Shown piece by piece: positions 9,393 through 37,800 of a stretch of 64,000 bases of DNA. Source of the stretch: Collybia mongolica (taxonomy: Eukaryota > Basidiomycota > Agaricomycetes > Agaricales > Clitocybaceae). Numbering within the stretch: the first letter of the stretch is position 1; each line of letters opens with the position of its first letter. The notes below the pieces were generated by a model, which saw only the letters and a list, made by a program, of their open reading frames with translations, did not search any database and was not told the origin of the DNA. The position numbers and the translations under genes are program-made. The stretch is taken from assembly GCA_013420905.1 (NCBI GenBank), contig JAAXNY010000011.1:2480001-2544000 (forward strand), read 5' to 3'.

Positions 9393-10074
9393 GGCCAGAG
9401 ATAATTCAAAATTGGTTAGTCGTCACCATTCTTTCTAACCGAACGAGAGCCTAATGCAAGATCCCAGCGCCGGCTAGCCCACCTGGGACGCTGCACTGTC
9501 TGCACGATCGCCTCTGATAAGTTATTGGACAGCACATCGACCTCGAAGTGCTACCAGGTACTATCGACAATATTTCTTGTGAAGGCCTTGCAATTCTGAA
9601 TTGATAGCGCTTCAACTTTCGGAAAGCCTTGAAACGGGAACAACTTGCACATATCCTCCGATCCCTTATATAACCAGTTCGAGCCGCAGGTCAAAAATTC
9701 GCGGAGCCCGATGATGCAATGTTACCTGTTGGGCATTCACGAGCGACGAAGCTATGAGAGGCCACCTGGGCATCGTGAGTTCCCGAACTCCTGCAAGATG
9801 TTAATGAGCTAGACAGACGAGAACCAGCCTCCAGGAGCCCAAACGGAAAGCGAACATCAGCAAGGTGTTCCACCCATTCCACCGATTAACGAGGAACGTC
9901 AACCCTGCTATTCTAATTGGATGTTTTCGAAGCGATCATATCTCTTGTTGGATCACGTTTGCCACATTACTATTAAAGGAGGTTCCTACCAAGGCGCTAT
10001 TCTGTCTTGTGGTACTTATAAGATTCTCGTATGGAATAGTCATGTGTTATTGTTCTCCACCCGTCCAAAATACC
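9393..10074. other. No gene seen
   Basis: No frame with a convincing protein, RNA gene or repeat. The last ~200 bases precede the 3' end of the first ICMT gene and probably contain its 3' UTR. Confidence 0.4.
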
Positions 10075-10840
10075 TCAGTACAGCCACGGAATAAGGGAAT
10101 AGGGGACGTTGTGCGTATATTCGACCCATTCTTCGTCAAATTGCTTTCTCAAAAGCCCATCCTCCACAGACATTCTGCGCAGCAAGTACACCATTATAGA
10201 CCCCATCATTGTACCGAATATGCCGAAGAACGCCCCCCCTACTCTCGTTTCTAACACGCCAGACGCCCTTAACCAGGATCCCTGAGAACCGTACCAGCAC
10301 ACCATCCCAGCGTATACCATTAACAGGGCGGAGTAGCTTGGGTGGCGGACTATTCCATAAGGCCCCGTCGTCACTAATTTGTGGTCCTTGTGGATACTGA
10401 CGTGATAGGTGAATAATTTCTTCAGTACTTGGTAACACCGCACCCTCAACAGGGTGCCGAGAGTTATCAGCACCATGCCTGTCACAGAGAGCGACGTAAG
10501 GCAAATATCATTGACGTTGCCTCGAACCATCAGCTTTGAAATTATTTGAGTAGATGTTGGGGCTGATGGCCATTCGTTGGCGCAAATGGTAGCTGCCTCT
10601 GTGATTCCAACCATCCAATATACGCCCTAGCAGACACTCCTCAGTACGTGGAATATGATGTTTGAGTGATAAGCTTCTGACCTTAAGAGACCACATGTAC
10701 CTTCTCATTATCATCATGGACCAATCGAGAGGGCCAGTTGGGCGTGGTTCCTCGCCTTTTGAGGAGACATTCGGGGGCGTGAAGGATTTGTGTATTCCAA
10801 CTGTGGCTACCAAAATGCAAGGTACTTTGATGATTGACAT
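10075..10840 (-). CDS. Isoprenylcysteine carboxyl methyltransferase-like (ICMT copy A)
   Basis: Predicted to be an ER-membrane enzyme that transfers a methyl group from S-adenosylmethionine to the carboxyl of a C-terminal prenylcysteine, the last step in maturing CaaX proteins and fungal lipopeptide pheromones. Two exons, 10840-10682 and 10626-10075, joined in phase 0, give 236 residues, the normal size for short STE14-like ICMTs. The SAM-binding signature TGPYGIVRHPSYSA lies near residue 145. The C-terminus has the family pattern RRMSVEDGLLRKQFDEEWVE followed by a Tyr/Pro-rich end. Four or five hydrophobic segments are visible. The start MSIIKVPC is shared with copies B and C. It is the most diverged of A-D at the HPSYSA and LFTYHVSIHK segments. 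First of five tandem minus-strand copies; frame fully open. Confidence 0.88.
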
Positions 10841-11640
10841 TACTCGAAATCTGCTGGCGTGCAAAGCTATTGCAGTGGGGAAGGGGGGGAAGAACAAGAA
10901 CTACCTAAACTTTCCATGCGCGATAAATCGACCCTGCCGACGCTGCCTTGCTCGCGGAGCCCAAAACAGTCACAAAACACATGGTCCATCGGCGCTAATT
11001 GATAGGCACATAAGACGAAGTACAGAGTCCGGAACTGCGGATACGAACAACGTCAACACGAGACACAGGTGACATCCTTGAGCTCCGAAAATTCTGATAT
11101 AATATCACAAGCCCGATATGGTGTCACTGAACGCCTTAAAGCCTTGATTGATCCTGGCTAACGTCGCGCCTCCATCATTTCACGACGATACACCGCGTTC
11201 GGTAGCGTGGTGGTTCGGTATGGATTTTACTGTATGTTTCATCGAGACAAACTAAAGTTGATTCCCAGTAGAGCGCTTCATTGGTCTCGCCTCACAATGG
11301 GTGCTTCACTCCTGTTAACAGCAGCCCGCATGACGGGTCACTGTCAAAGCAACTTAGAGGTTGCCATGAATGTTACTGAACCGCAATATCGCAGTGGTCC
11401 TTATCAACGCAAACCTCGAGAGTTAGGAGGGAGACAATTCATATCTTTCTCGCATCTTAAACACAAAACGGGCGTGGATATTTTTGACTGGACACGTGGA
11501 AACCAATTCGATCCTTTATCGAATTATATTTCCTATATCACCATCACACAGACCATTTGGTAGAGCATGGTTTATCGGGATCCATAAGTCTTTCATTTCG
11601 AACAGAAATATGCTGTGACAGCTGTCATTCGTGGAGTATC
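10841..11640. repeat. Intergenic segment between ICMT A and B, part of duplicated unit
   Basis: No intact gene. The part from about 11150 to 11600 shares long stretches with 13300-13720 and 15220-15440: a block around ATTTCACGACGATACACCGC, a block around GAGGGAGACAATTCATA and a block around ATATCACCATCACACA. These mark the boundaries of a tandem segmental duplication that carried the ICMT gene together with about 1 kb of flank. Confidence 0.65.
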
Positions 11641-12413
11641 TCAGTACACCCCTGGGATCACGTAGTACGGAACATTTTGCGCATATCGAACCCATTCTTC
11701 GCCAAATCTCCTCTTCAGAGCTCCGTCTTCCCTAGGCATCCTCTTTAACAACCCCACCAATAGACCCCCCATGAACGCGCCGAATGCGCCGAAAAACGCC
11801 TTCCCTCCGCTCGTCTCCAGCACACCAGACTCCCTCAGCCAGGATCCCCGAGAACCGTACCAGAATGCCATCCCAGCGTACACCATTGCCAAGCCGGAAT
11901 AACTTGGGTGGCGGACTACTCCATAAGGTCCTGTTGTCACCAGTTGATGATTCTTGTGGATGCTCAGGTCGAACGTGAAGAACGTCTTCATTGCTTGGAA
12001 ACACCGCATCCTCAATAGGGTGCCGAGAACTATCAGTACCATACCCGTTGCTGAGAGCCGGGTAAGGTAAAGATTGTGGACATTGCCTCGAAACATCAGT
12101 TTAGAAAGGATTTGTTGGGATCTTGGAGCTGATGGAAAATTGTTGGCCAAAATGGCTGCTGCTTCTGCGATTCCAACCATCCAAAATATACACTGGAAGA
12201 CGCTTTTTAGTATGTGGGATGTGATGCCTGTGCAATAAGATTTTGTATACTTACCTTGATAGTTCCCATCGACCTCGTCGCCAACATTAGGAACCCATCC
12301 CACGGGGTAGTATGGGGTAATTCCTCGCCTTTCGCGGAGACATTTGGAGCCGTGAAGGTTTTGTGTAGTCCAAGTGAGGCTACCAATATGCAAGGTACTT
12401 TGATGATTGACAT
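11641..12413 (-). CDS. Isoprenylcysteine carboxyl methyltransferase-like (ICMT copy B)
   Basis: Same predicted role as copy A: carboxyl methylation of prenylated C-terminal cysteine. Exons 12413-12255 (159 nt) and 12192-11641 (552 nt) match the exon sizes of A, C and D exactly and splice in phase 0 through a 62-bp intron beginning GTAAGT and ending TTCCAG. The product is 236 residues, with TGPYGVVRHPSYSG as the SAM-loop signature and RRFGEEWVRYAQNVPYYVIP at the C-terminus. Its N-terminal exon encodes MSIIKVPCILVASLGLHKTF. No stop or frameshift is seen. A longer read-through frame through the intron exists, but the shared intron position in five copies argues for splicing. Confidence 0.9.
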
Positions 12414-13762
12414 TACTCAAACCCTGTGGAGATGCAAAGCTATCCAAGGAAAGGAACAATATCTCCGCTTATAAATGTACAACTCAAGGTGAAATTTCCT
12501 ATTTCGTTGTTGCCTTACCCACAGAGCCAGATCTTTCCCATGACATGCGACCAATCATCGCTCCTGCGGTTAACTCGTGGGGTCAAGGTATGCTTCTGCG
12601 AAGGCTTGAGGTAGTGAGTAACGAGATGTCATTTCTTAGAAGCTCCTTGTGGGGTCACATTACCGATTTGAAGGGAAAGCATGGACCGGTGGCCGATCCC
12701 CTACGAGACGAAGCCTTGGTGCTTCTGCTTCATTAAGAGGGACGGTGGTGAGTCTAGGGAAAGCAAGGTTGTCATGATGGTTTCGCTGAAGACTTTAAAA
12801 CTAGTTGGTCCTGCCAGTGAGTCAGACCCACGTCTTTTCGCCTTGTAGTACAACGACCTTGAACCGCCCTGTCGGGACGCTTTTTCAATGCAGGTCCCTT
12901 TCCACGCGCCACGATACCAATACTCCCACGCCTTGCATTCAGTGATGGAGCGCAACGAGGCGACGATCGGTCGGCCTTCGGCATTGTTCTCGTAATCGAA
13001 CTGCATGCGCAACAATAGACAGGGTATCGATTTGTGTAACGTCAATAGGCTGGATCGTCCCAAGGTCTGCAGTCTCTCCACAGCAAAGGCAGCCACCGGC
13101 ATGTCACAGGACTCGGGGAGAATTCGAAGGTAATGCCAACGACGTTTAGCCGAGCACACGGGAGAGGCGTGAAGGTACCTATCAGCAAGTCATGAATCCA
13201 TAGCTGTATGCACCACCGACCTGAAGCGACCAACCAATCATGGATCAACGCAATCAGTTGAATTGGACTACGTTTTTAGGCATCGTTCGAGCCTGGCCAT
13301 TGTCGCACTTTCACTCTTTCACGACGATGCGCCGAGTTCAGGAGCGTGGTGGTTTGGTGTGTATTATACTCTGTGCTTCATAGAGACAAGTTAACATTGT
13401 TAACAAGCAGAGCGCTTCACTGGATCACAATAATTCGTCTCGCTATAAAACAGGTGGTTCTCTGTCAATTTCCATGAAGGGTTATTTCCAAAGTAACCTA
13501 GGGGTTGCCGCGGATGTTACTGAACCCCACGCAGGATTGCTGTAATCCTAACCAACGCAAAACCCAAGAGTTTGGAGGGAGACAATTCATAACTTTCACG
13601 TCTTCAGGCTAGACACGTGGAAACCAACTGGATACCTTGTCGAATCGTATTTCCTATATCACCGTCACACCATTGGAAGAGTGTGATTCGTCGAAATTAA
13701 CAAGTCTATCATTTCGAACAATCTGTCATTAATGCTGTCATTCTCTACATGTGTGGAGTATC
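12414..13762. repeat. Duplicated flank with decayed coding-like segment, between ICMT B and C
   Basis: On the minus strand a frame at 13159-12701 runs through HYLRILPESCDMPVAAFAVE and a YWYRGAWKG segment. Related but frame-broken versions lie upstream of copies C (about 15170-14760) and D (about 16960-16600); the shared landmark is a DNA word CACGGGAGAGGCGTGAAG at about 13160, 15160 and, with changes, 16950 and 18832. I read this as a passenger gene or 5' region that was duplicated with the ICMT genes and then decayed. No family recognised. Confidence 0.55.
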
Positions 13763-14531
13763 TTAGTACAACCCTGGGATCAGGGAATACGGAACATTGT
13801 GCGCATATTCCACCCATTCTTCGCCAAATCTATTCTTCAAAGTTCTGTCTTCCACAGACATCCTTCCCAATAACCCTACCATTAGAGTCCCCATCATCGT
13901 GCCGAATATGCCGAAGAACGTCTTCCCTCTACTCGTCTCTAATACGCCAGACTCTCTCAGCCAGGAACCCCGAGAACAGTACCAGAATGCCATCCCAACA
14001 TGCACCATTAGCATGCCGGAATAACTTGGGTGGCGGACTACTCCATAAGGTCCCGTTGTCACCAATTGATGATTCTTGTGGATGCTCAAGTCGAATGTGA
14101 AGAACGTCTTCATCGCTCGGAAACATCGCATCCTCAATAGGGTGCCGAGAGTTATCAGTACCGTACCCGTTGCTGAGAGCGGGGTAAGGTAAAGATCATT
14201 GGCGTTGCCTCGGACCATCATCTCAGAAAGGATTTGTTGAGATCTTGGGGCTGATGGAAAGTTGTTGGCCAAAATCGCTGCTGCCTCTGTGACCCCAATG
14301 GTCCAAAATATACTCTGGTAGATGCTTCTCAGTACGTGGGGTGTGATACCTGAGCGATGAAATTTTGTAGACCTTGATAGCTCCCATCAACCTCTTCATC
14401 GCCACCAGGTACCAATCCCATGGACCAGTACGGGGTAATTCCTCGCCTTTTGAGGAGACATTCGGAGCCGTGAAGGTTCTGTGTAGCCCAACTGTGGCTA
14501 CCAGTATGCAAGGTACTTTGATGATTGACAT
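13763..14531 (-). CDS. Isoprenylcysteine carboxyl methyltransferase-like (ICMT copy C)
   Basis: Third tandem ICMT. Exons 14531-14373 (159 nt) and 14314-13763 (552 nt) give 236 residues. The second exon opens with S-I-F-W-T where the other A-D copies have a V/I-Y/F-W-M motif, so the methionine common to the others is threonine here, which is why a naive start in exon 2 fails. TGPYGVVRHPSYSGMLMVHV carries the SAM loop, and the C-terminus reads FGEEWVEYAHNVPYSLIPGL. The frame is open throughout. Methylation of prenylcysteine carboxyl groups is inferred from family signatures. Confidence 0.88.
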
Positions 14532-15476
14532 CACTCGAAATCTGCTGGGATGCAAAGCTGTCCAAGGGGAAGGAACGAGATCTCTGCTTATAAGTGTACA
14601 ACCCAAGGTGGGATTGCCTTATTCCGTTGCTACTTGGTTATACCCAAAGAGCCAAATATATCCCATGACATGCGACCTATTGTCGCTTCTGTGATTGATG
14701 CGTGGCGTCAAGGCATGCTTCTAGCTGGAAGACTTGAGGTATAAATATTCGATATTCGATATTCAGCACTGATCCCTTTCCACGCGCCATAGTACCAATC
14801 ATCTAATTTCCCACGCGCGTAAATAATCTCACCAGGGCAAATGATATCTATACGTTTATCAAAAACTGTTGTGCTCCTTTCCTCTTCAATATCTCCAGGT
14901 CTTGATTTTTACCTGTCGAGCGGGCGACGCGATGGAGAGCAATGCGGCAGCGATCAGTTGGCCTCGGTGTCGTTCTCAGAACAATCGAACCATGTTGCTG
15001 CTCGCAACAAAATGCGCAACGATGGACGGGACATCGATCTAACGTCAATCAGCTGAATTGTATCGGGGTCTCCACAGCAAAGACACCCACCGGCACGTCG
15101 TAAAATTGCGGGAAAAGCAGTGCTGATGCCCAACGACCTTTGGCACACGGGAGAGGCGTGAAGTTACCGCCTTTTGAGGAGGCATTTGGATGACGTCTGC
15201 GTCTGAATCTCTGAACTCTATGCACGATTGCAGTGGTCCTAAATAAGGCAAAACTCACCAGTTTGGAGGAGGTAATGCATATCTTTCGTAGCTTGAAACA
15301 CAAAGCAAACGTGGACACTTTTGACTGGACATGTCGCCTCGAAGTGGATCCTTTGTCGGGGCTTTTTTCATATATCACCATCACACATACAATTGGAAAA
15401 GGATGGTTTACCAAGATACAAGGGATTTTTATTTCGAACAATAACATGCTATCATCCTCCACCTATGTGGAGTATC
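14532..15476. repeat. Duplicated flank between ICMT C and D
   Basis: Contains the second copy of the passenger segment (frame-broken on the minus strand, with a piece reading FPQFYDVPVGVFAVETPIQF) and the conserved block around ATATCACCATCACACA before the next gene's 3' end. A short ATATTCGATATTCGATATTCAG repeat-like word lies at 14745-14767. No intact gene. Confidence 0.6.
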
Positions 15477-16241
15477 TCAGTACACCCCAGGGATCAGAGA
15501 ATATGGAACATTGTGCGCATATTCAACCCATTCTTTGCCAAATTGCTTCCGCAAAGCTTCGTCTTCCACCGACATCCTTCTTAACAACCCTACCATCACA
15601 GCCCCCATCACCGTGCCAAACATGCCGAAAAATGCCTTCCCTCTGCTCGTCTCTAGCACGCCGGACTCCCTTAGCCAGGATCCCCGAGAACCATACCAAA
15701 ATACCATTCCAATATATACCATTAGCATGCCGGAATAGCTTGGGTGGCGGACTATTCCATAGGGCCCCGTTGCCACCAGCCTGTGATTCTTGCGGATGCT
15801 CAGATCGAATGTGAAGAATGTCTTCATCGCTCGAAAACACCGCATCCTCAATAGGATGCCGAGAGATATCAGTACCATGCCAGTTACTGAGAGCGGAGTG
15901 AGGCAAAGATCATCGACATTGTCTTGGACCATCAGTTTTGAAAGGATTTGTCGAGATCTTGGGACTGAAGGCAAATTGTTGGCCAAAATAGTTGCTGCCT
16001 CAGCGATCCCAATCATCCAATATACACACTGAAAGACGCTTCTCAGTAGCGGGTATGATGCCTGGGCGATAAGATTGTATACCTTGATAGCTCCCGTCGA
16101 CCTCCTCGTCATCATCATGAACCAATCCCACGGACCGGTAACGGGTAATCCCTCGCCTTTCGAGGAGACATTCGGAGCTGTGAAGGCTTTGTGTAATCCA
16201 ACTGTTGCTACCAATATGCAAGGTACTTTGATGACTGACAT
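15477..16241 (-). CDS. Isoprenylcysteine carboxyl methyltransferase-like (ICMT copy D)
   Basis: Fourth tandem ICMT. Exons 16241-16083 and 16028-15477 splice in phase 0 and give 236 residues; the 54-bp intron is a multiple of three and free of stops, so the gene also reads through as 254 codons, but the intron coincides with those of the sister copies. Start MSVIKVPC. SAM signature TGPYGIVRHPSYSGMLMVYI, C-terminus RRMSVEDEALRKQFGKEWVE and a VPYSLIPGVY end. Predicted membrane enzyme for prenylcysteine methylation. Closest to copy C by eye. Confidence 0.9.
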   Translation of the reverse strand: MSVIKVPCILVATVGLHKAFTAPNVSSKGEGLPVTGPWDWFMMMTRRSTGAIKVYNLIAQASYPLLRSVFQCVYWMIGIAEAATILANNLPSVPRSRQILSKLMVQDNVDDLCLTPLSVTGMVLISLGILLRMRCFRAMKTFFTFDLSIRKNHRLVATGPYGIVRHPSYSGMLMVYIGMVFWYGSRGSWLRESGVLETSRGKAFFGMFGTVMGAVMVGLLRRMSVEDEALRKQFGKEWVEYAHNVPYSLIPGVY

Positions 16242-17768
16242 CGCTCAAGCTCTGCCGGCATGCAACGCTGTCCGAAGGAAAAGAACGAGATCTCCACCAA
16301 TAAGTGCACGAACTCAAGATGGAATTGCCTGTTCCGTTTCTGCCTTACCCAGAGCCAAATCTATCCAATAACATGTGACATATTATCGCTTCTGTGATTG
16401 ATGCGTGGGGTCAAGGTATGCTTTCAGGAAGACTTAAGCTTATAAATAACCAGGTAGCGTTTCTTGGAAGCTTCTCGTTAGGTCACTATCACGATTTGAA
16501 GGGAACCTAAAGCTGCTATAATAGTTTTGCTGAAGACTTTGAAGCCGATTGATTCTACCAGAGTCACTCACGTCTGGTGAAGCGCCCCTGCCAGGATGCT
16601 TGTGCAGCGCAGGTCCCTTTTCATGCGCCATGATGCCAATATACGCAATGGTCCTGTCCCACTAGCCTACGCCCATGCACAATCTCATCAGGGCACCTCC
16701 ACGCCTTGATTCATCCTGTCGACGGCGAATGACGCGATGGAGCACAATGCGGCGATGATCAATTGCCTTCGACACCATTCTCAGAATAAATGAACTACTT
16801 CGCAACTCGGTGCGCAACGATATATAGGACATCGATCCAACGTCAATCAGCTGGGTTGTCTCAAGATCACCACAGCAATGGCAGCCACCACCACGTCGTA
16901 GGGTTGCGGGAAAGGTAGTGCCGATGTACAACGACCTTTAGCACATGGGAAAGGCGTGAAGCTACCCACTAGTTGATAATAAGTCATGAATCCACATCTG
17001 TGTGCACCATCAACCTGAAGCAAGCCGCAATTATAGATCGATGCAACTAAAATTGGACTACGACTACGAGCCCTGGCATATGCGACACGTAGCATCCCGA
17101 AAGTCAGCGTCCCGCTTTGTGAGACCAAGTAGCCCGTCCGTTGCACAAACATCTTGCATGCTTGTGCACGAGCTGTCACATATTGGCGCCGGCTATCCGG
17201 CGTCACGAATGGTAGCGAGTTGTGAGATTTTTGTATCTCCATGCGTCTGGCACCCCATATTATGATAACGAACTAGAAAGCATGATAGTACCTTTGATCT
17301 GCGAGAAATCAATCCAAATATCCACTTCCATGTGGTATAGGGAGACGGATAGATCCTAGTTTATCGCGGTTATCATCATACGTCACCATTGACTAGCACA
17401 CGGAATAGATTTTTTCGTGACTTTGTACGAAGCTACTTTTTGTACGTGCAACACAATACTTCTATGAATCCTCATATCATGGAGGGCCATGCTCACATTG
17501 TGACGGGAACCCGGCCAGGAGGGGGCAATTTCCTCAATACGGGCCTGTTGCCTAGAGACCTTCTCTATGTTCTCATGTCTGTTTTCCTGGAACAATATCA
17601 ACAAGTGTCATTCTGTCAAATTCATTCAGTCATTAATAGCTTCCTGGATTTCTCTTCTCCGCGGCTACTTTGGAACAGCGTTTACGCGGGAGAGGCATAA
17701 GCAACTCAAATCCACTCGACCCCGGAAAGAAAGAAATACATAATAAGTACACGGTGTTTGGCGGTATA
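16242..17768. repeat. Duplicated flank between ICMT D and E
   Basis: Third version of the passenger segment (about 16500-17060; on the minus strand a piece reads LVGSFTPFPCAKGRCTSALP). The part 17250-17700 has no counterpart elsewhere and no convincing gene. Unit spacing is larger here than between A-D, in keeping with E being the older copy. Confidence 0.55.
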
Positions 17769-18535
17769 TTAGTACAAGTACGGTATGAGTGAATATCGTA
17801 CACGTTCTGTCCATTCCACCCATTCAAACCCGTACACGTCCTTTAGCGCCTCGTCCTCGGACCGCATCCTTCTGAAGAGCCCGAAAAGGAGACCCACCAT
17901 CGCTACTGCAAAGGCTGCAAAAAATGTGCTGCCTGCCAGGGTCTCCAATATACCACTTTCTCTTAGCCAGGATCCCTGAGACCCATACCAGAGAAAAGCA
18001 CCGATATATGTCACCAGTAAGCCAGCATAACCCGGATGTCGCACAACATCGTACGGTCCTGTCGTTATCAGATTGTGATCGATACGGATAGCGTGCTCGA
18101 ATGTATAAAGGTGCATCATCACTTGATGACATTGTATTTGAAGCAGGGTCCCGAAAACGATGAAGAGGATTCCCACTGCGGAGAGCGGCGTGAGGTAGAT
18201 GTTCTGCGCGCTGCCGTATAGGAACAGCGTAGCGAGGATGCGTGTCAAATGTGGCGACAGGGTGAGATTTGTGGCCATGATGGTGATTATTTCCGCGGCA
18301 CAAATCGCCCATAAGACACCCTGAAAAGAGCTGTAGCACAGAACGACGCAGTTTTCGTCTCTCGACGTACTTTAATAGGCCTCATGAGTTTTATCATCGT
18401 CTTCAAAAAGCGGTCCCAACCATCTTGTATTGGCGCCTCTTCTTTCTCCGAGGATGTTCCAGGAGGCGTGAAGGAAATGTGTAGCCCGAGGGTGGCCAGC
18501 AACACGCAAGGCAGTTTCACGAGTGGCTCGTACAT
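17769..18535 (-). CDS. Isoprenylcysteine carboxyl methyltransferase-like (ICMT copy E, diverged)
   Basis: Fifth and most diverged member of the array. Exons 18535-18371 (165 nt) and 18320-17769 (552 nt) join in phase 0 for 238 residues. The start is MYEPLVKLPC and not MSIIKVPC, the SAM loop is TGPYDVVRHPGYAGLLVTYI, and the C-terminus is RRMRSEDEALKDVYGFEWVE with a VRYSLIPYLY end. The second exon has exactly the length seen in A-D, so the fold is presumably conserved. It is nearest to the pheromone/receptor core (1.4 kb from Phe1) and could be the ancestral copy from which A-D were duplicated; that order is inference. Confidence 0.88.
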
Positions 18536-19968: not shown

Positions 19969-20091
19969 ATGGATCAGTTTACTAGCCTTTTTCCCGAGCC
20001 CCTCTCTGCTGAAGAGATCGAATCATTCGTGGATCTTCCGGTTGACGAAGATTCTGTGTACCGTCCACCTACCTGGTGCGCGATCGCATAA
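19969..20091 (+). CDS. Lipopeptide mating pheromone precursor Phe1 (CAIA)
   Basis: Forty codons, too short for default ORF detection. The product starts MDQFTSLFPEPL, is acidic in the middle and ends RPPTWCAIA. The CaaX box CAIA directs farnesylation of the cysteine, removal of AIA and carboxyl methylation, giving a secreted lipopeptide for a partner's STE3 receptor. The M-D-x-F start, acidic pro-region and CaaX end are shared with three other small genes here. A clear Glu-Arg processing site is missing; the acidic DED before SVY may serve. An intron-like sequence (GTACGC…ATAG, 20092-20144) begins directly after the stop. Situated between the ICMT array and receptor R1. Confidence 0.88.
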   Translation: MDQFTSLFPEPLSAEEIESFVDLPVDEDSVYRPPTWCAIA

Positions 20092-21159: not shown

Positions 21160-22584
21160 TCATGCCATATCGTGAGAGGGCCGAGAGAGAGAGTATTTGG
21201 GAGGACCATATGGCGATGTTGGGGAGCAGGCTAGCGTACAAGAGGAGTCATGCATTGTGAAGGAGGAGTTGGATGGCGTCGTCGCATACAATGAAGCCTT
21301 GTCCAAGGGTATCGAACGTAGATCGAACTGTTCTGATCCTGGCTTGCATGTTATACCCGTTTTCGTCTCCTGGAAACTAGTTGTTCGGGGCGGGGTTGGG
21401 CTACGGGTAAGGAGGTCAAAAAAAAAAAAAAGGGCGAAAGAGTAAAGCTGAATAACACATACTGAGAGAATGTAGGAAAAGATATCGACCCTTTGATGCT
21501 TGGGGTATGTTTCCTCCTGAACACAACCCTTACAAACCAGTCAATACACGCCTTGTATTCTTTCATCGCATCCTCGCCGAAGGAAAAGAAGACGAAGAAG
21601 AGGAAGGAGCTGATAGGGACTGTCCACCATGTAAAATGGGTCCAACTTAGAATGAAGCTTGGGATAACTCGCGTCGGAAATACACCAACGCGGGAGAAGT
21701 TGCTATGGACGTCAGCCCAATCCGTCCAGGGTCGTAGCCCATTGCGACAGGTGAACCAGACGTTGATGGACATCATGAATATTCCCCAGAACATTTGGAC
21801 AATGGCCATGGCCATGAGTCGGAAGTACCTCGAGGTAGTGAGGGCTGAATTTGAGTCTTGTAAATGCCGCGAGAAGGCAAGTCGTCTTTGAAAGAAATGC
21901 ATTAAAGCGAGGCCTAAAGGAATAGACTTTTTAGAACTCAGACGAGGAAGAAAATTGACGGATACTGACCAGCGAAGACCATCGTCAACACAACGACGAG
22001 AAGGGGGAGTGCCCATATTACTAGGACAGATTGAATTGAAGTGAAGATGGCAGGGCGGCACCCAAAGTCCTCTACGATGTCGTAACGATGCCCTTGCACA
22101 ATGTAGTCTGTGGCATGTGTCAATTAGGAAAGCGAGGATAAATGGGCCAACACATACGTAGTGCCATGTAAATGAAAGGTAAGCCCCAGCAAAGTAGTAA
22201 GTCGAATAGCGTCCTTCGTTGCTTCTGTTGTATAGTGATTTGTGCGTGGCGTATGGATGCAATTCGTTCAAGATGAATACACAGACATAAGCAGCATGCA
22301 GGGAGAGCCATCGTGGACCCAATTTGAATTTTAGTTACTAACATAGATGAGTTGGTGACTTTCAATAAGAAGGCATTGAACACACCAATATCACACCAAA
22401 CAGGAACGACAATTCTAACATTTCCGGCCCATATGATCGCATTCGCGCCGTATATAATGTTTGCGAAGAACAGCCAGATGACAATTGAGAGTGTCGGTAC
22501 ATTACGAGCTCTCCAATGCCACGGTAAGGGAATGAGGACAAGGATTGCTGCAAGGAAGGCACTGAGGGGGAGTTCGACATGCAT
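21160..22584 (-). CDS. STE3-type pheromone receptor R1
   Basis: Class D seven-helix receptor expected in the plasma membrane, binding farnesylated pheromone and signalling through a heterotrimeric G protein. Five exons: 22584-22386, 22337-22158, 22107-21970, 21913-21463 and 21376-21160, total 394 residues. Family landmarks: LPWHWRARNVPTLSIVIWLF (helix 2), VPVWCDI, the MALPACCLCLCIHLERIAS segment, IVQGHRYDI, TSRYFRLMAMA, RPWTDWADVHSNFSRV and FSFGEDAMKEY at the end of helix 7. The final splice uses GTATGTG to an AACTAG acceptor; a read-through frame would instead stop at 21351. The first three exon lengths (199, 180, 138) are identical to R3 and R6. Divergent from Phe2, with which it shares a 430-bp promoter region. 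Confidence 0.92.
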
Positions 22585-23012: not shown

Positions 23013-23171
23013 ATGGACGATTTCGAATTGTTTGACACAACCGCCCTCCTTGGGACTACCGCCCTCGTCGCACAAAACGACTCTAACTGGTCAATACCAT
23101 TTGAGTCTATTCCCATTGATTCCGAACGTGTTGATGGCTATACATCCCATGGCTTTTGCGTTATCGCATAA
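23013..23171 (+). CDS. Lipopeptide mating pheromone precursor Phe2 (CVIA)
   Basis: Fifty-two codons, start MDDFELFDTTALL and end GYTSHGFCVIA. CVIA is a good farnesylation CaaX box. The SER-VDG context gives a Glu-Arg processing site ten residues before and including the cysteine (V to C), the expected size of a mature basidiomycete lipopeptide. The ATG is chosen because MDxF starts all four precursors here and follows a CAACACCACT leader. A 3' UTR intron (GTTTGT…CCACAG) is likely shortly after the stop. Placed between R1 and R2, both transcribed on the other strand. Confidence 0.92.
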   Translation: MDDFELFDTTALLGTTALVAQNDSNWSIPFESIPIDSERVDGYTSHGFCVIA

Positions 23172-23954: not shown

Positions 23955-25548
23955 TCATCGTGCGATAGGACCAGCTGAGGTCGTGTCGACTCGGATCATT
24001 ATATAGTCAGAAGGAAGATCGGTGAGACGAGAAAAAGGCGGAGAGTCAGGATCCGGAGTTTCCGAGTCCTGGTCCACATGGGTGGCTGACAAAGTGTGGA
24101 AAGATCTCTGATAGTGTGGTAAAGAGGATCGGGTCGATCCTTGGTCGCTGACGTCGGTAAATGAGGATGTAGGTGCCTTATGACCTTGGATATCATATAG
24201 AGGAGTAAATGAGGAAGATGGTGATAAGTGTGATGGTGAGAGTGAGTACATGGGCAATGGGGGCGTGGCCGACGTCGTAAAGAAAGGTTTGAGTTTATGT
24301 TGTCTGTTGAGGGGCTTAAGCAAGGAAAGGAATGCGAGACAACTGAGGACACTTACCCAATCGATGGATACTTTCCCGACGTCTGAACGGCCGCAGGACA
24401 AAAACCAAACGGCTTGACAATACACCAGAATGCGGCACGATAGTTTTTTTGCGCTTCATCTGCAAAACCAAAGAAGGCGAAGAAGACCAAAGCACACAAT
24501 GGGGTGACCCAACGAGAAAATTCAAATGACATGGAAAGAAGCTGATTTGATCTCCAGAAGATGGCAGGTATCTGCTCAACACGAGAAAATGCGAAGTGTG
24601 TGTCCTCCCAACTTCTCCAAGGGCCAACTGGAGTGGCAGTTGCGTTGAGCCAAATCATGAAAATAGCAAGGGGTGTCGTAAGGAGCATTTCGGTCATCGC
24701 GAGGGCCATGAGACGGAAGTAACGGCTGACTGTAAGCGACTTGTTGGAAGAAAGGAACTGACTAAACTCTACACGGCGTAGAGCAAAAGAGCGGAGGGAG
24801 AGTACTAGATAAAGGGAGTGTTTAGGATCGCGTCGCGTCGCCAGGAATGAAACGAGGAACGTACCACAGTATACAAGAGAAATCAACCCAATGACGATCG
24901 GCCACATGCCCGATATGAAGTAGGTGAGAACAGTATTATACAAGGCAGGGTAACAGCCAATATCTTCAAGAATGTTGAAACGATGACCTTGTACGACATA
25001 CTCTGGAATAATCGGGTCAGATGGTTGACAAAGTGATATATGACATAAACTCACGCATCGCGATGTAGATTATAGGAAAAAGTACGCAAATCAACGCGTC
25101 TACCAAAATTGAACGCATTTTCTGGGTAATGAGCCAGGTTAGCAACAACCTGGAGAAAAAAGAAGCATGGCACACCTCCCCGCGGGATATGCTAACGGAC
25201 CGGACATTGGCAATCATGTAAAGTCGCCTATTGATGCATAACGATGCTGCGGGAAGGCCAACCGATGCCCCCATCATGATTCGGATAGCTGTACTTTGGA
25301 TGAGACCGAGCATACAGTGAAGCGAGGTCTGAGTACATACAGATGTCACACCATATCGGGGCAGGATTGAGGGAGTTCCCGTGCCATACGATGGAGTTTA
25401 CGAATTGATTCAAACACGCTAGAGCGGCCCACATCATGTAGAAACATGTTCCTGAGTTCCATGCCTGAAGGTGCCATGGTAGAGGAATCAAAGAAAGGAT
25501 GAAACCGAGAAATGCGAAGATTGGGAAGAGAGGGTAGCTTGGGTCCAT
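23955..25548 (-). CDS. STE3-type pheromone receptor R2
   Basis: Seven-helix receptor for lipopeptide pheromones. Six exons: 25548-25341, 25288-25176, 25121-25055, 25002-24865, 24804-24357 and 24303-23955, total 440 residues. Landmarks: IPLPWHLQAWNSGTCFYMMW, APIWCDI, ASLCINRRLY, YVVQGHRFNILEDIGCYP, TVSRYFRLMALAM, RSWEDTHFAFSRVEQIPAIF and FFGFADEAQKNYR after helix 7. Two introns (54 and 60 bp) are multiples of three without stops and would be missed by ORF calling; they are supported by alignment with R4 and R5. The cytoplasmic tail is Ser/Thr/Pro-rich. Head-to-head with Phe3. Confidence 0.92.
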
Positions 25549-26135: not shown

Positions 26136-26285
26136 ATGGACGCCTTCACAAACCTAGAAAGCTTCTTCGCGTCTATTGAGCTTCAAGTTCCTCCCCAACC
26201 ACACGAGTCGTTTGACTCATGCCCACCAGTGGACGAAGAGCGGTACGACGCTGGAACAACCCGGGCTTTCTGTGTTATCGCCTGA
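26136..26285 (+). CDS. Lipopeptide mating pheromone precursor Phe3 (CVIA)
   Basis: Forty-nine codons, beginning MDAFTNLESFFASIEL and ending with DEERYDAGTTRAFCVIA. The EER-YDAG junction is a canonical Glu-Arg cleavage point leaving a ten-residue peptide (Y to C) for farnesylation and carboxyl methylation. The start MDAFT is identical to Phe4, suggesting a recent common origin of the pro-region, while the mature part differs. A 3' UTR intron starting GTACGTGTCC and ending CACGCAG follows the stop after a few bases. Sits between R2 and R3. Confidence 0.93.
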   Translation: MDAFTNLESFFASIELQVPPQPHESFDSCPPVDEERYDAGTTRAFCVIA

Positions 26286-27384: not shown

Positions 27385-29054
27385 ATGTATCCTGAATTCG
27401 CCCCCATCGCCTTCATCGCTGCAGCTTCTGTTCTGATGGTCCTACCGTGGCACTGGCGTGCTGGAAACGTGGCCACGCTTGCTCTTGTCTTCTGGCTGTT
27501 CATCACCAACCTCATCTATGGTGTGGATGCTATTGTGTGGGCGGACAATGTTAAGATTATCATTCCAGTGTGGTGTGACCTCAGTGCGCCTACTATTATA
27601 ACTTGTGCGGTTTCCTGTGATTGACCGTTTTTATTTCGTTTACTAGCAACGAAATTGATCATTGGTGCCAACGTCGCTTTGCCAGCAGCTTGTCTTTGCA
27701 TTTGCATCCACCTCGAACGAGTCGCCTCTGTTCGTATGGCGCGCACGAATATATCGGACAAACGACGTCGTCAGATATTTGAAGCCTCAGTGTGCTTTGG
27801 CCTTCCTCTTCTTATCATGGCCCTTCGTACGCAATGTTTCGTTATCCCGATATGACACCCCCTCATGCAAGCACCTCCAGATTACATTGTACAGGGTCAC
27901 CGCTACGACATTATTGAGTCGTATGGATGTCGCCCGACGACGTACTTCTCAGTTGCGGGAATTTTCATTGTCTGGCTTCCTCCCATTCTCCTATCCATTG
28001 CCTCACTTGTATACGCTGGTAAGCGATGCCATGGCGAATCCTTTTTCCAATACTTATTCAGCGCGTCTAGCCCTCGCATTACGCCACTTTATGCAACGTC
28101 GTGTATCATTTGCCGCTCATCTAACCACAACCCATTCCGCCCTAACGACGTCACGGTACCTACGACTCATGCTCATGTCCGTGCTTCAGATGGTTTGGTC
28201 TCTCGCCATAACATCATACGCGCTCTGGTTCACGACAATATCCATTCCAATCCGTCCGTGGACTACATGGGATGACGTGCACTCCGACTTCCTCCGTGTC
28301 GATACTTTCTTGACCATTTTCACGCCATCTAAGATCATCACCAGCTTCTACATCCTATGGTGGACGGTCCCCGCCAGCACATTCATCTTCGTTGCCTTCT
28401 TCGCATTCGGTCGTGATGCGCTCGACGAATACAAAAAATGCTTCATGTGGTTCCGAACACGCGTTCTTCGTCAAACTATCGCTACCAAATCGTCGAAGGG
28501 CAGCTTTTTAAGTATTCCGACCCTACGGTAAGCCTACTCTCATTTCCATCTCATTCCACATTGTTCTAATTCAACCCGACAGGTCATCTCCCGCCGAAAG
28601 TAAATTCCAATTAGCCTCAAAATCATTTGCAACGTCAACAACGTCGACTGTACCTACGTACAGCGCCCCTGCTCCCCCTTCCCCAACGAAATATAAAAGC
28701 ACGCTTGATATGTCTGACCACGATTCTCAATCCGTATTATCACACTATGGGTCACGCGTGTCGCTCCCGTATTCCCATGAACCGAAAGCTATCGGTTCTT
28801 TCTCCGATCTCACTCAACCCCCAACACCCTCTACGCTAGTCACGTCAGCGTCGCCCTTCTCACAACACCATAAACTGGACAATGTACCATTAACGCCTAG
28901 ATCTCCACCTACCCCATTCCCCGCGCCCCCACGACACCCCCGCGTTGAGGAAGCTGCCGCAGCTCAGACTCCAACCTCACCTCGTCCTTTCACGTACCCC
29001 TCGCTCCATGCGTCTCATAGAGGAATCAATTCTCCGAATCATAATATTGTATAG
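27385..29054 (+). CDS. STE3-type pheromone receptor R3
   Basis: Plus-strand receptor, the only one in this orientation. Five exons: 27385-27583, 27647-27826, 27881-28018, 28062-28527 and 28583-29054, total 484 residues. Landmarks: LPWHWRAGNVATLALVFWLF, IPVWCDL, ALPAACLCICIHLERVASVR, YIVQGHRYDIIESYGCRP, TTSRYLRLMLMS, RPWTTWDDVHSDFLRVD and FFAFGRDALDEYKK. The tail of about 150 residues is Ser/Pro-rich (SLHASHRGINSPNHNIV end). Exons 1-3 equal those of R1 and R6 in length and phase, so R1 and R3 are sister genes. It is followed on the same strand by Phe4. Confidence 0.93.
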
Positions 29055-30031: not shown

Positions 30032-30202
30032 ATGGACGCATTCACATCTATCGACCTCGAATTCATACTTGACGCCGACAACGTCGCCTCATTCTTCTCC
30101 ACCCCCACATCCACGTCCTCACACGGGGACACAGAGATCCCCGTAGACTTCGAGGTCCGGCACGGTCCGGGAGGCTCGACCTGGTTCTGCGTCGTCGCCT
30201 GA
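30032..30202 (+). CDS. Lipopeptide mating pheromone precursor Phe4 (CVVA)
   Basis: Fifty-six codons, start MDAFTSIDLEFIL, acidic and Ser/Thr-rich middle, end FEVRHGPGGSTWFCVVA. CVVA is a farnesylation-type CaaX box. The probable processing point is after EVR, leaving HGPGGSTWFC; the pair is VR with the Glu one residue earlier, a variant of the Glu-Arg site in Phe2 and Phe3. Located downstream of R3 in the same orientation and marking the right edge of the dense core. Confidence 0.92.
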   Translation: MDAFTSIDLEFILDADNVASFFSTPTSTSSHGDTEIPVDFEVRHGPGGSTWFCVVA

Positions 30203-32927: not shown

Positions 32928-33105
32928 AATTATACAAGTTAATCGCTTCTTGCTCCTGAACCCCCATCATCCCCCTCGGGGTCCTGGGTAATTCACCACT
33001 TTTAGCCATCCTTTCCCCATTTATTGCCTCCTTTCAGCTCTGGCCCCTCAAGCCACCCTTTCTTTTCTCAAAACCCGTCACCCCTCCAACTCACGTACAC
33101 CAAAC

Positions 33106-34842
33106 ATGCCCAGCACTGCCCCCTCCACTTCCAAAACCAACAAACCAACCAGGTCCCAGGACCCCGAACCCACCCCCATACGTGGCATGCCCACGAGATC
33201 CGAGATCAATTCAATCCTAGCCGCTGACCCGTGTAAGATCGACAACGCAAATGACGCTCGCGCCTGGCTCGAAGGCAAGAGCTGGATTCTCGAAAGCGAA
33301 CCCTACAACCGGTCTAAGCTAGTCCACATCTTATTAACCATCTCTCTCTCTCCCGGTATACCCTCTAACCTAATCCCAGCCATCCGTTCCGTAGCATTCC
33401 TAATAGAAGACAATGTCAACGACACCATCTCCACCGCCCTAGCCAAAACCATCGCCAACAAAATCTTACCATCTCTTTCTATAATTTCTGATAACTTATC
33501 CTCCTCCACTAATTTCCTAGACAAAGTTTCCTCAACACAAGCAACCACATCCCTCTCGCTAACTGACACTACTGACAAACTCTCCTCTATTACAGAATCC
33601 CTAGAAACAACAGCCTCTACTCTCGCCACACTACCCCCCCCTCCCCCCGCCCTCCCCTGCAAAACCCCCACCTGGGCCGATATCGTCGCCTCAACTCCCT
33701 CACCTCCCTCCCTCCCCTCCCCCAATTTCAACCCCTCCCTCCCCACCCAACACACCCTGTTACAACAACGCATCCTAGCAGCAGCCAAGACCATCATCAT
33801 ATCCTATAACCCCGAGGACGTCGGTGCCCCTCAAAGTGCCTTGTCCAAAGACCTAAATGACACCCGTCTCGACCTTAACAAACTCCTTACCAGCCTCGAC
33901 AATACTGAAAACGAATTCGCGGACCCCGGAGAACTTCAAATCCAGTCCAACATCCGAGGAATACAAGCTCTTGAAAGCGGCGACCTTCGATTAGACTTTT
34001 CCACCCCCGAAGGAGCGGAAGCCTTCAAACGTCGCGCATTGGAAGCGGGCTCCACCTTCATCTCTACCTACTTCGGCACCTCAGCCAGGATCAAACCTCG
34101 AGGCCACAACGTCATCATGAAATTTGTCCCCTGCACCGGCACCTTCGACCCCTCCAACCCCACCCATATCTCCGACTTTGAACTAGACAATAACCTACCC
34201 CCTGGCTCCATCATGTCCGCCACATGGCTCAAGAGGATCGAAGCACGAAACGTTGGCCAGAAAGTTGCCAACTTAAAGTTCGTCTGTAACTCTGCTGCCA
34301 TTGCTAACCGTCTACTTTCAGATAGAGTCTACGTCCTCGGCACCCTAACCCCTGTATGCAAAGACATACGCATCCCCATCCGCTGCAACAAATGTCAGCG
34401 CTATGGCCACCTACGCGCCAACTGCAAAGGCTCAGAGACCTGCGCCAGATGCAGCAGTCATTCTCATCCTACCTCCAACTGCCCCGGCATCGACCCCCCT
34501 CGCTGCGTCTCCTGCGGTCCCTCCTCCTCTCACGCTAGTAACAATTCTAACTGCCCTTCTTTTCAGGAAAAGTGCGCTGCGCTCGACGCCAAATACCCCG
34601 AGAACATCATGCCCTTCTTCCCCACCAGCGAACCTTGGACCTGGGCCACCGCTCCCCCCAAACCCTCAAAGATCACCACCACACTCCCACCACACCCATC
34701 CCTCCCCCCACGTCCCCCCTCCCCACACCACGCATCCCGCCACCCTATTAACTCCCAATCAAATTTCAACCCCACCCCCCAACCAACCGGCCCCTCTACT
34801 CGATCCACCCCCCCTCTAACATCCCCTCGAATTGATGATTAG
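33106..34842 (+). CDS. LINE ORF1, gag-like nucleic-acid-binding protein
   Basis: 578 residues. The N-terminal half is Ser/Thr/Pro-rich with predicted helical parts (TTDKLSSITESLETTASTL). The C-terminal third holds cysteine-histidine knuckles: CNKCQRYGHLRANC (CX2CX4HX4C), CARCSSHSHPTSNC and CVSCGPSSSHASNNSNC. Such proteins coat the retrotransposon RNA and act as chaperones in reverse transcription. The tail is very proline-rich. Its TAG stop (34840-34842) overlaps the ORF2 start. Confidence 0.9.
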   Translation: MPSTAPSTSKTNKPTRSQDPEPTPIRGMPTRSEINSILAADPCKIDNANDARAWLEGKSWILESEPYNRSKLVHILLTISLSPGIPSNLIPAIRSVAFLIEDNVNDTISTALAKTIANKILPSLSIISDNLSSSTNFLDKVSSTQATTSLSLTDTTDKLSSITESLETTASTLATLPPPPPALPCKTPTWADIVASTPSPPSLPSPNFNPSLPTQHTLLQQRILAAAKTIIISYNPEDVGAPQSALSKDLNDTRLDLNKLLTSLDNTENEFADPGELQIQSNIRGIQALESGDLRLDFSTPEGAEAFKRRALEAGSTFISTYFGTSARIKPRGHNVIMKFVPCTGTFDPSNPTHISDFELDNNLPPGSIMSATWLKRIEARNVGQKVANLKFVCNSAAIANRLLSDRVYVLGTLTPVCKDIRIPIRCNKCQRYGHLRANCKGSETCARCSSHSHPTSNCPGIDPPRCVSCGPSSSHASNNSNCPSFQEKCAALDAKYPENIMPFFPTSEPWTWATAPPKPSKITTTLPPHPSLPPRPPSPHHASRHPINSQSNFNPTPQPTGPSTRSTPPLTSPRIDD

Positions 34843-37800
34843 AGCCCCAGCCACCCTCCCCGCATCCCTCTGTATTTGGCAACAGAACGTCCGGAAATCA
34901 ACCGTTGCCCAACAGTACGTCATCGGAGTCGCCGACCCTCGCGAATGGGACATCATCGCAATCCAGGAACCCTGCCTAGACCACTTCCACAACACACATG
35001 CCTCACCCTACTGGCGTGTCGTCTACCCCCTCAACCACACCACAAACTCCGCCGCCAAAATCCGCTCACGCTCAGTCCTCCTCATCAACACCAACATCGA
35101 CACTGAAGCATACTCTACACTACCAATTCCCTCGCCAGACATCACAGCCATCAAATTCCGCACCGAAACCGGCTCCCTATCCATCTTCAATATCTACAAC
35201 GACTGTACCCACAACGCTTCACTAGAAACGCTCGCAAACTTCCTCCCCTCACTAGCACTCGATCGCAACGGCACCGATCATATGCTATGGCTAGGCGACT
35301 TCAACAGACACCATCCCCTCTGGGAATCCTCCGAAAACCGCCACCTCAACTCACCAGAAGCTCAAGTACAGCCCCTCCTCGACCTCCTAAAGGACTACGA
35401 TATGGATTTGGCCCTCCCCCCCAACCTCCCCACCTACTTTTCCTATCGCGGCAGATGGACGCGTCCCGACAACGTCTGGTTCTCCTCCTACGACCCTGAC
35501 CTCCTCATCTCCTGCGACACACGAACGGACATCCTCCCACCCCTCACGGACCACACCCCCATTCACACCACCCTCAACCTCCCCATCCCTAGACCGCCAG
35601 CTCCCCCCTCTTACAACTTCCACAACGTCAACTGGGAAGAATTCTCTTCAACCCTCGAACGCGAACTTAGCGCCGCCTCCCCTGCGTCCAGAATTCCCAA
35701 CGAAGATGAGTTCCTCACCAAAGTCGACACACTCACCACCATCATACAGAACACAATCTCCCAGCACGTTCCCCTCCGCAAACCCACGCCCTTCTCCAAG
35801 CGCTGGTGGACTGACGAAATTGCCAGTTTAGTCAAACAGAAAAACAAACTTAGTAACCAAGTTAAGCGCTTCTCGCACATAACTAATCACCCCTCCATAG
35901 CAGCCCATAGACGAATATCCAACAAGCTAGCCGAAACGATACAAAAAACCAAAAAATCCCATTTCGTCAACTGGCTCGAAGGAGCCACATCTAAGGACAT
36001 CTATGTTGCCAACAAATACGCTACTGACGAACCCTCCGACAGATCCTGCGCCCGCATACCAGACCTCAAAATTGATGCCAACGACACACCGGCGCTAGCT
36101 ACCTCCAACCAAGAGAAAGCCAAGCTCCTCGCAGAGTCCTTCTTCCCACCTCCTCCCCCCACCCCCTCCGTCCCACCCAACTTCACTTACCCCAAACCCC
36201 TCCCTGATATTGCCTACTTCTCCCACCACCGAATTAAGGATGCCATCTCCCAGCTTCACCCCCACAAAGCCCCAGGCCCCGACGGTATCCCCAACATCGT
36301 ACTCAAGAATTGCGTACCGATACTCCTCAACCACCTCCACTACATCTACAGAGCAGTACTCGAACTCAACATCTACCACCCCCGCTGGCTACAATCCACT
36401 ACCCTCGTGCTCAGGAAAGGTGGGAAACCAGCCTACAACGTCGCCAAAGCCTACCGGCCAATAGGCCTCCTCGACACCATAGGTAAACTCTTCTCCACCC
36501 TCCTCGCTGCTGAGCTCTCCCACCTAGCGGAAAAACACAACCTCCTTCCCCCATCTCAATTCGGAGGACGCTCAGGTAGAAACACCTCCGACGCCCTCCA
36601 CCTCATGACGTACAAAATCAAAGAAGCCTGGCGAAACAAAAAAGTAGCCGTCTCACTCTTCCTTGACGTCCAAGGTGCCTTCCCCAACACGGTAAAAGAA
36701 CGACTTATTCACAACATGAAAGCTAAAGGCGTCCCAGTATGTATCACTAACATCGTTAGTCAAATGCTCACCGGACGCACCACACGCCTAATGTTCGACG
36801 ATTACCTCTCGGACTTCTTCAACGTGGACAATGGAACCACCCAAGGTTGTCCCTTTTCCATGCTAGCATACGCATTCTACAACACCCCCCTCTTCTCCAT
36901 CCGCTTTCGCAAACACGAAATCACCATCGGTTTTGTGGACGACTGCACCCTCCTGGTCATTGCCTCCTCCCTCGAAGTCGCCCATGAATACATCAAAAGC
37001 CTCATGGAATGCCAAAACGGCGGGTTTGAATGGTCCATCTCTCATAACTCACCCTTTGAACTTTCCAAAGTTGCGCTAATGAACCACCCCCGCACTACTA
37101 ACGACATCATCCCACAGGACCTTGTCCTCACCCGCACCAACCCCAACGGCACGGTCACCACGCAGACCATCAAAACGGTTACCGAATACAAGATCCTCGG
37201 GGTCACGATAGATCCAAAACTCAAATGGACCAAGCACCACGACAAAGTAGTTGCAAGCGCTACGAACTGGACCTCTCAAATAGCCCGCCTCCCCCGCCTC
37301 TCCGGGGGCCTCTCCGCGAAAAATATGAGGCAGCTCTACAACACTGTTGCAATCCCCGCCTTCACATACGCGGCTGACGTTTGGTACACAGGTATCTCAA
37401 CCCCCTCCTCAGGCTCCAAACGATCCGGTTCCATCTCAGTAACTAAAAAGCTAGCCTCAATCCAATGCAATATGGCCAAAACCATCACAGGCTCCATACG
37501 CACAGCCGCAGGTGATGCCCTCGACGTCCACGCTAACCTTTTACCCATAGACCTCCTCTTCCACAAAGTTCTCTTCCGCTCTACGTTACGATTAGCCTCC
37601 CTCCCCCCTTCCCATCCCCTCCACCCCCTTGTTAAAAAAGCCGCCACCCGCCGCACTAAACGGCACCGCTCCCCACTACACAACCTCTTCCACCTCTACG
37701 ATATTACCCCCTCCCTGATTGAAACCATCCTCCCCACACGCCTCTCACCCAACTACTCCCCTCCCTTTACTATCAACATCCCAGACGACAAACCTACGGC

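What the first reader, a model, noticed from the sequence alone, without database searches (positions are those of the whole stretch)
10075..18535. Five-gene tandem array of STE14-like prenylcysteine methyltransferases beside a pheromone/receptor locus
Most eukaryotes keep one ICMT gene. Here five intact copies with conserved exon sizes (159/165 + 552 nt) lie head to tail 1.4 kb from the first lipopeptide pheromone gene. ICMT catalyses the last maturation step of CaaX pheromones, so the array could be a dedicated, co-inherited pheromone-maturation module, possibly with copies tuned to different C-terminal contexts (CAIA, CVIA, CVVA precursors). I know of no described system of this layout. The sequence shows the array and the adjacency; the joint function is inference.
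Basis: partly seen in the sequence, partly recalled or inferred. Interest (0 to 1): 0.88.

Follow-up and report, generated by a model that had tools for sequence, protein, structure and literature searches.

The report
Methyltransferase gene cluster beside mushroom mating genes
A mushroom chromosome carries a real row of five related membrane methyltransferase genes beside its mating-pheromone genes; neighbours of this kind, in one or two copies, are already known from bolete fungi, so this looks like an enlarged version of a known arrangement whose role in mating is still untested.

Summary
The array is real. Five two-exon genes (236-238 aa) lie head to tail on the minus strand; the last starts 1.4 kb from the first of four lipopeptide pheromone ORFs. 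Corrections: (1) only A-D are a recent tandem set (65-78% identical); E is 46-48% identical to them. (2) The exon sizes recur in dispersed paralogues. (3) The family is large: 12 modelled members here plus broken or partial ones, including an intact sixth copy and two relics 27-37 kb left of A. (4) They are not STE14: the one STE14-type gene found lies unlinked on C5; the family is 21-25% identical to it and shares an insertion of about 19 residues. (5) C and D have weak splice donors. Cofactor-site motifs are kept and dN/dS among A-D is 0.22-0.46, so most copies are probably active. ICMT genes beside the B locus are published for Boletales (Mujic et al. 2017, PMC5473757): one or two copies in 9 of 11 genomes (my count). 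Tuning to CAIA/CVIA/CVVA is unlikely, because aaX is removed before methylation. New member of a known kind; a pheromone role is plausible, unproven.

The parts
10075..10840 (-). Copy A, ICMT/PEMT-type methyltransferase, exons 10840-10682 and 10626-10075, 236 aa
   Evidence: donor GTCAGA
11641..12413 (-). Copy B, exons 12413-12255 and 12192-11641, 236 aa
   Evidence: donor GTAAGT
13763..14531 (-). Copy C, exons 14531-14373 and 14314-13763, 236 aa; weak donor GTCTAC
15477..16241 (-). Copy D, exons 16241-16083 and 16028-15477, 236 aa; weak donor GTATAC, intron open in frame (254 aa if retained)
17769..18535 (-). Copy E, exons 18535-18371 and 18320-17769, 238 aa; divergent neighbour, not part of the recent A-D expansion
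11150..16505 (.). Tandem units around B, C and D: DNA blocks of about 1.3-1.5 kb, 77-78% identical, reaching into the flanks; A's homology with them (74-77%) stops at about 10071-10870
   Evidence: blastn self-comparison
19969..20091 (+). Pheromone precursor ORF 1, 40 aa, ends CAIA
21555..22560 (-). STE3-type receptor 1 (span of HMM matches)
   Evidence: coordinates minus 2,480,000
23013..23171 (+). Pheromone precursor ORF 2, 52 aa, ends CVIA
24440..25521 (-). STE3-type receptor 2 (span of HMM matches)
26136..26285 (+). Pheromone precursor ORF 3, 49 aa, ends CVIA
27406..28432 (+). STE3-type receptor 3 (span of HMM matches)
30032..30202 (+). Pheromone precursor ORF 4, 56 aa, ends CVVA

Best explanation
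A lineage-specific tandem expansion (A-D, beside the older neighbour E and, further left, an intact copy and two relics) of a divergent, intron-conserved family of ICMT/PEMT-type membrane methyltransferases, of the sort already known to flank the B mating-type locus in Boletales. Shown: the genes, their relationships, retained cofactor-site motifs, dN/dS below 1, and a separate unlinked STE14-type gene. Inferred: the copies are ER-membrane, SAM-dependent carboxyl methyltransferases that methylate farnesylated cysteine after aaX removal, adding capacity for pheromones and perhaps other CaaX proteins to the housekeeping STE14. The array arose by unequal crossing-over with birth and death of copies; sequence tuning to particular pheromones is not needed and not indicated.
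For: Gene models and HMM matches. A-D 65-78% identical, with homologous flanks around B-D and a supported A-D clade (96/96). Relics and a sixth copy nearby. dN/dS 0.22-0.46 by NG86 and 0.24-0.58 by YN00 for the six A-D pairs; bootstrap upper limits 0.33-0.72. RHP[S/G]Y and R[M/V]xxE[D/E] kept in 12 of 12 modelled members; their His and Arg match by position the S. pombe Mam4 residues H168 (cofactor) and R205 (prenyl substrate) named in a passage of PMC5519673, whose spacing of 37 is that of STE14_C5. The best NCBIfam match of D and E is the isoprenylcysteine methyltransferase model, though far under its cut-off (42.6 and 31.4 bits against 160; STE14_C5 itself 73.2). Published adjacency of ICMT genes to the B locus in 9 of 11 Boletales genomes. 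A ste14 deletion is sterile in C. neoformans, so ICMT activity matters for basidiomycete mating (PMC4894686 passages).
Against: PEMT outscores ICMT in all five and in 3 of the 6 other family members scanned. A profile of 12 members reaches the solved ICMTs with only 35-36 bits, no more than it gives a plant protein called AtTam46 (35 bits), with sterol reductases at 23-28 bits; STE14_C5 reaches the insect ICMT with 161 bits over 218 residues. A shared insertion of about 19 residues lies between the conserved His and Arg, and the GTQ...NP stretch of STE14 is absent. Introns are nearly as conserved as exons among A-D (70-80% against 74-86%), so constraint rests on dN/dS alone. No dispersed member lies within 360 kb of a STE3 match found, and no CaaX pheromone ORF passed my filter in the 10-kb stretches around seven dispersed sites, STE14 included (the C5 3800k and C1 2625k sites were not scanned). 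Adjacency in this one genome would arise by chance at about 2% in a crude, after-the-fact simulation. The order of the fungus was not established. No expression data.
Confidence: 0.5

Rival explanations
1. The family methylates a different lipid or lipid-linked carboxylate (PEMT-like or another amphiphile). Its place beside the pheromone genes is inherited linkage in a duplication-prone region, with no part in pheromone maturation.
For: PEMT scores above ICMT in A-E; substrate-side divergence and insertion; an unlinked STE14-type gene with open frame is available; the six other modelled members outside C11 lie away from STE3 matches; an ICMT-family enzyme with a glycolipid substrate is known (RhlM, PMC11069360 passages).
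Against: Adjacency to the B locus is reported in 9 of 11 Boletales genomes; the equivalent of the prenyl-substrate Arg is kept in 12 of 12.
Confidence: 0.33
2. First reader's module: a dedicated pheromone-maturation array whose copies are tuned to the different precursors.
For: Array next to four pheromone ORFs and three receptors; dN/dS below 1 among the copies.
Against: CaaX proteolysis precedes methylation, so CAIA, CVIA and CVVA look alike to the enzyme; the family insertion is the most conserved of seven segments among A-D; copies C and D have weak donors.
Confidence: 0.07
3. Mostly decaying duplicates: only B and E (perhaps A) give protein efficiently, the rest are on the way to relics like those to the left.
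For: Weak donors in C and D; C unspliced hits a stop; introns nearly as conserved as exons; relics with stops at C11:2456866-2457573 and 2462064-2462678.
Against: All five frames are open after splicing and dN/dS lies below 1 in all six A-D pairs; one STE14 intron also lacks the +5 G.
Confidence: 0.1

Closest known systems
B-locus ICMT genes of Boletales (Mujic et al. 2017, PMC5473757)
   Same: ICMT-type genes immediately beside the pheromone/receptor cluster; within-species duplication; top STE14 hits elsewhere in the genomes; many further ICMT-like genes
   Different: One or two copies beside the P/R genes there (two more 130 kb away in C. puteana; the P. involutus pair sits with one receptor on a separate contig) against five here; sequences could not be compared with the tools on hand
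STE14 / eukaryotic ICMT (PDB 5v7p, 5vg9)
   Same: RHPxY and RxxxE(E/D) cofactor-site motifs; membrane enzyme superfamily
   Different: 21-25% identity to this genome's own STE14-type gene, insertion of about 19 residues between the conserved His and Arg, no GTQ...NP stretch, two exons in A-E instead of five
ICMT gene cluster of Coniophora olivacea (PMC5689174, Table 3)
   Same: Multigene ICMT family (eight signal-peptide-bearing members clustered by similarity) in one Boletales genome
   Different: No location relative to mating genes given in the section read
RhlM rhamnolipid methyltransferase (PMC11069360)
   Same: ICMT-family enzyme outside STE14
   Different: Bacterial; substrate is a glycolipid; shows that family membership does not fix the substrate

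Membership tests
STE14 / canonical ICMT orthologue | End-to-end similarity to solved eukaryotic ICMT | tested here: not met
   Array-family profile 35 bits in all, best stretch positions 96-163, against 161 bits over 218 residues for the C5 gene
STE14 / canonical ICMT orthologue | Conserved cofactor His and substrate Arg | tested here: met
   Present in 12 of 12 modelled members; roles from a passage of PMC5519673, mapped by the 37-residue spacing shared with STE14_C5
STE14 / canonical ICMT orthologue | Carboxyl methylation of farnesylated cysteine | not testable with these tools
   Needs enzyme assay or yeast ste14 complementation
ICMT/PEMT-type membrane methyltransferase superfamily | Pfam PF04140 and/or PF04191 above curated cut-off | tested here: met
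   A-E above both cut-offs; 12 of 12 family members match both at E <= 0.01
B-locus-linked ICMT genes of Boletales | ICMT-type gene immediately beside pheromone/receptor genes | tested here: met
   E starts 1,434 bp from pheromone ORF 1; receptor matches start 3.0 kb beyond E
B-locus-linked ICMT genes of Boletales | Orthology to the published Boletales genes | not testable with these tools
   Protein database was off; no fungal sequence collection on hand
B-locus-linked ICMT genes of Boletales | Host belongs to Boletales | not tested

The most novel reading that the evidence does not exclude
The B locus of this fungus carries its own, expanded set of pheromone methyltransferases of a family distinct from STE14, inherited with the mating type, so that pheromone methylation capacity is partly a mating-type-linked trait and can differ between B alleles by copy number.
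Probability: 0.15. Interest if true: 0.6.

Novelty: new member of a known kind. Interest (0 to 1): 0.32.

Why it matters
If the cluster does methylate pheromones, a maturation enzyme would be co-inherited with the signal it matures, and mating capacity could vary between B alleles by gene dosage. If it does not, the case shows that 'ICMT' labels near mating loci in mushroom genomes name a separate family of unknown substrate. Either way it extends an arrangement already described in Boletales, so the surprise is moderate.

Tried and rejected
Rejected: the array as STE14 duplicates (the STE14-type gene is on C5, 22-25% identical to A-E). Rejected: exon sizes as an array signature (shared by dispersed members). 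Rejected: assembly duplication, since A-D differ by 22-35% in protein. AlphaFold2 from five window sequences gave mean pLDDT 40, so no fold search was run. Tree: E, the sixth copy and the C4 828k/C10 325k pair group with A-D (97/95) but their branching order is unresolved; the first tree, with STE14 and the partial C13 row, was poorly supported (1 of 11 inner branches starred), and those two rows were dropped. dN/dS with E, F and the two dispersed members tried is saturated (dS 1.6 to 3.3 or undefined, YN00 failed) and is not used. Papers opened by search terms that gave nothing on ICMT at the B locus: Phlebopus portentosus PMC12411881 and Boletus edulis PMC12134998, Serpula lacrymans PMC3564976 (no 'methyltransferase' in the main text), Gomphus PMC9498453 (pathway-table row), Suillus bovinus PMC10971629 (pathway-table row).
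Full report
Observation. Spliced models give 236 aa for A-D and 238 aa for E, all on the minus strand, with exon sizes 159+552 nt (A-D) and 165+552 nt (E) and GT-AG introns of 50-62 nt. All five match PF04140 (ICMT) above its cut-off, but PF04191 (PEMT) scores higher in each: 46.2 against 39.8 bits for A, 51.0/39.1 for B, 48.0/41.9 for C, 50.0/39.8 for D, 39.2/29.1 for E. The start of E (18535) lies 1,434 bp from the start of the first pheromone ORF (19969). Four pheromone precursor ORFs passed my CaaX filters in the window, ending CAIA, CVIA, CVIA and CVVA, and the STE3 matches in the window fall into six regions by my grouping.

How intact. Of 16 splice donors read by eye in A-F, the dispersed members and STE14, 13 have G at +5; the exceptions are C (GTCTAC), D (GTATAC) and one STE14 intron (GTAATG). 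A's donor GTCAGA resembles GTCAGT, found twice in the STE14 model. D's 54-nt intron is open in frame (255-codon stop-to-stop frame); C unspliced runs into a stop. So 'five intact copies' is right for the reading frames and less sure for splicing of C and D. No transcript data were available.

The wider family. PF04140 gives 16 matches in the genome and a search with copy D gives 30 matching stretches. I modelled 12 full family members: A-E; F at C11:2452611-2453379; C4 at 828k and 2039k; C10 at 325k, 3172k and 3174k; C1 at 2635k. Broken or partial ones are C10 at 323k (stops inside), C13 at 903k, C5 at 3800k, C1 at 2625k and two relics at C11:2456866-2457573 and 2462064-2462678. Of the seven non-array members, three have exactly 159+552 nt (C4 828k, C10 325k, C10 3172k), F has 159+555, C10 3174k 150+552, C1 2635k is a single open frame, and the C4 2039k model failed there and was completed with a further intron. 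The exon pattern is thus a family trait.

Relationships. Protein identity is 65-78% among A-D, 46-48% between E and A-D, 51-56% between F and A-D, 33-53% between A-D and the six other modelled members, and 21-25% between the 12 and STE14_C5. A-D form a clade with 96/96 support; E and F join a wider clade (97/95) without resolved order. Self-comparison shows DNA blocks of about 1.3-1.5 kb, 77-78% identical, around B, C and D, while A's homology (74-77%) stops near its gene ends. This fits unequal crossing-over, with E an older neighbour.

STE14. C5:3028813-3029793 holds a five-exon gene of 262 aa that matches insect ICMT (5vg9) with 161 bits over 218 residues and PF04140 with 86.9 bits (PEMT 48.2). 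A profile of the 12 family members reaches the archaeal ICMT (4a2n) with 36 bits, a plant protein called AtTam46 and the insect ICMT with 35 bits each, and sterol reductases with 28 and 23 bits; the insect match lies mainly over the cofactor stretch. In NCBIfam the isoprenylcysteine methyltransferase model is the best match of STE14_C5 (73.2 bits), D (42.6) and E (31.4), all under its cut-off of 160. Between the His of RHP and the Arg of RxxxE the spacing is 37 in STE14_C5 and 55-56 in 12 of 12 family members, hence a shared insertion of about 19 residues with an invariant GSW. The same 37-residue spacing separates S. pombe Mam4 H168 (cofactor) and R205 (prenyl substrate), which I saw in a passage of PMC5519673; I take the family's His and Arg as their equivalents. 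So these are ICMT/PEMT-type enzymes with a kept cofactor site and an altered substrate side, not STE14 orthologues. PEMT outscores ICMT also in F, C4 828k and C10 325k, but not in C10 3172k, C10 3174k and C1 2635k.

Selection. NG86 dN/dS for the six A-D pairs is 0.22-0.46 (YN00 0.24-0.58); bootstrap 95% upper limits are 0.33-0.72. Exons are 74-86% identical among A-D, introns 70-80%, the 300 bp upstream 49-69%, and the 250 bp downstream 42-46% for pairs with A and 71-76% for the other three. Introns are thus nearly as conserved as exons, and the case for constraint rests on dN/dS. Among A-D the insertion is the most conserved of seven segments that I set (16 of 23 positions; SAM core 19 of 29), which gives no sign of specificity changes there.

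Adjacency. In a crude simulation, made after the fact with nine ICMT-type places and six STE3 places of my grouping scattered at random, at least one pair falls within 1.5 kb in 2.3% of runs (4.2% within 10 kb). One genome alone is therefore modest evidence. The literature shows that the arrangement recurs: Mujic et al. 2017 (PMC5473757; I read the sections on the B locus and on receptors and ICMT genes, and search passages of others) report an ICMT homologue immediately 3' of the B locus in all Boletales genomes examined except Pisolithus. Their Table 3 lists 11 genomes, two of them Pisolithus, hence my 9 of 11: one copy in six, two in R. vinicolor, S. lacrymans and P. involutus (the last pair with one receptor on a separate contig), and two further copies 130 kb away in C. 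puteana. [quoted passage not shown] They report that all top STE14 BLAST hits lie away from the B locus and suggest differential pheromone maturation. My searches for other descriptions (listings from open-licence PMC papers only, of which I opened those named here) showed no array of five. The order of the present fungus is not established; linkage of this kind would fit Boletales.

Mechanism. Methylation is the last CaaX step and follows aaX removal (PMC5014548 passages), so the copies cannot tell CAIA, CVIA and CVVA apart. A ste14 deletion is sterile in C. neoformans (PMC4894686 passages). In C. cinerea two ICMT genes are among those downregulated in the snb1 fruiting mutant, and the authors only speculate on pheromones (PMC10949477 passages). 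An ICMT-family enzyme with a glycolipid substrate exists (RhlM, PMC11069360 passages). My preferred reading is extra carboxyl-methylation capacity at the B locus on top of STE14; another lipid substrate with inherited linkage is a serious rival.

Limits. No homologue search was possible, the structure model was useless, and there are no expression data. Names of transposons below are from my reading of translations, not from a family search.

Noticed in passing
window 54018-55052 (+) and C11:2475239-2476270 (-): Two open 344-aa frames, nearly identical by eye, that look like a Tc1/mariner-type transposase (label by eye), one in the window and one about 4 kb left of it: recent transposition around the B locus.
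   Followed up: no
window 32992-38851 and 47353-52600: Long open frames that look like a non-LTR element (reverse transcriptase-RNase H) and a Gypsy-type LTR element, lying between STE3 receptor regions (labels by eye).
   Followed up: no
window 39401-40421, 57063-58083, 60715-61348: Three further STE3-type receptor regions with no CaaX pheromone ORF found near them by my pattern; possibly non-mating receptors or pheromones missed by the filter.
   Followed up: partly
window 12944-13272, 14893-15168, 16697-17062: Repeated stretch upstream of copies B, C and D (66-76% identity in blastn pieces), part of the tandem units.
   Followed up: no
G000 C11:2739752-2740776, C1:4660422-4661472, C15:162969-163346 and 242475-257467, C4:1671040-1672126: STE3 matches outside the B locus; no pheromone-like CaaX ORF in the six 10-kb stretches taken around them except one unconvincing 27-aa frame in L022.
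   Followed up: partly
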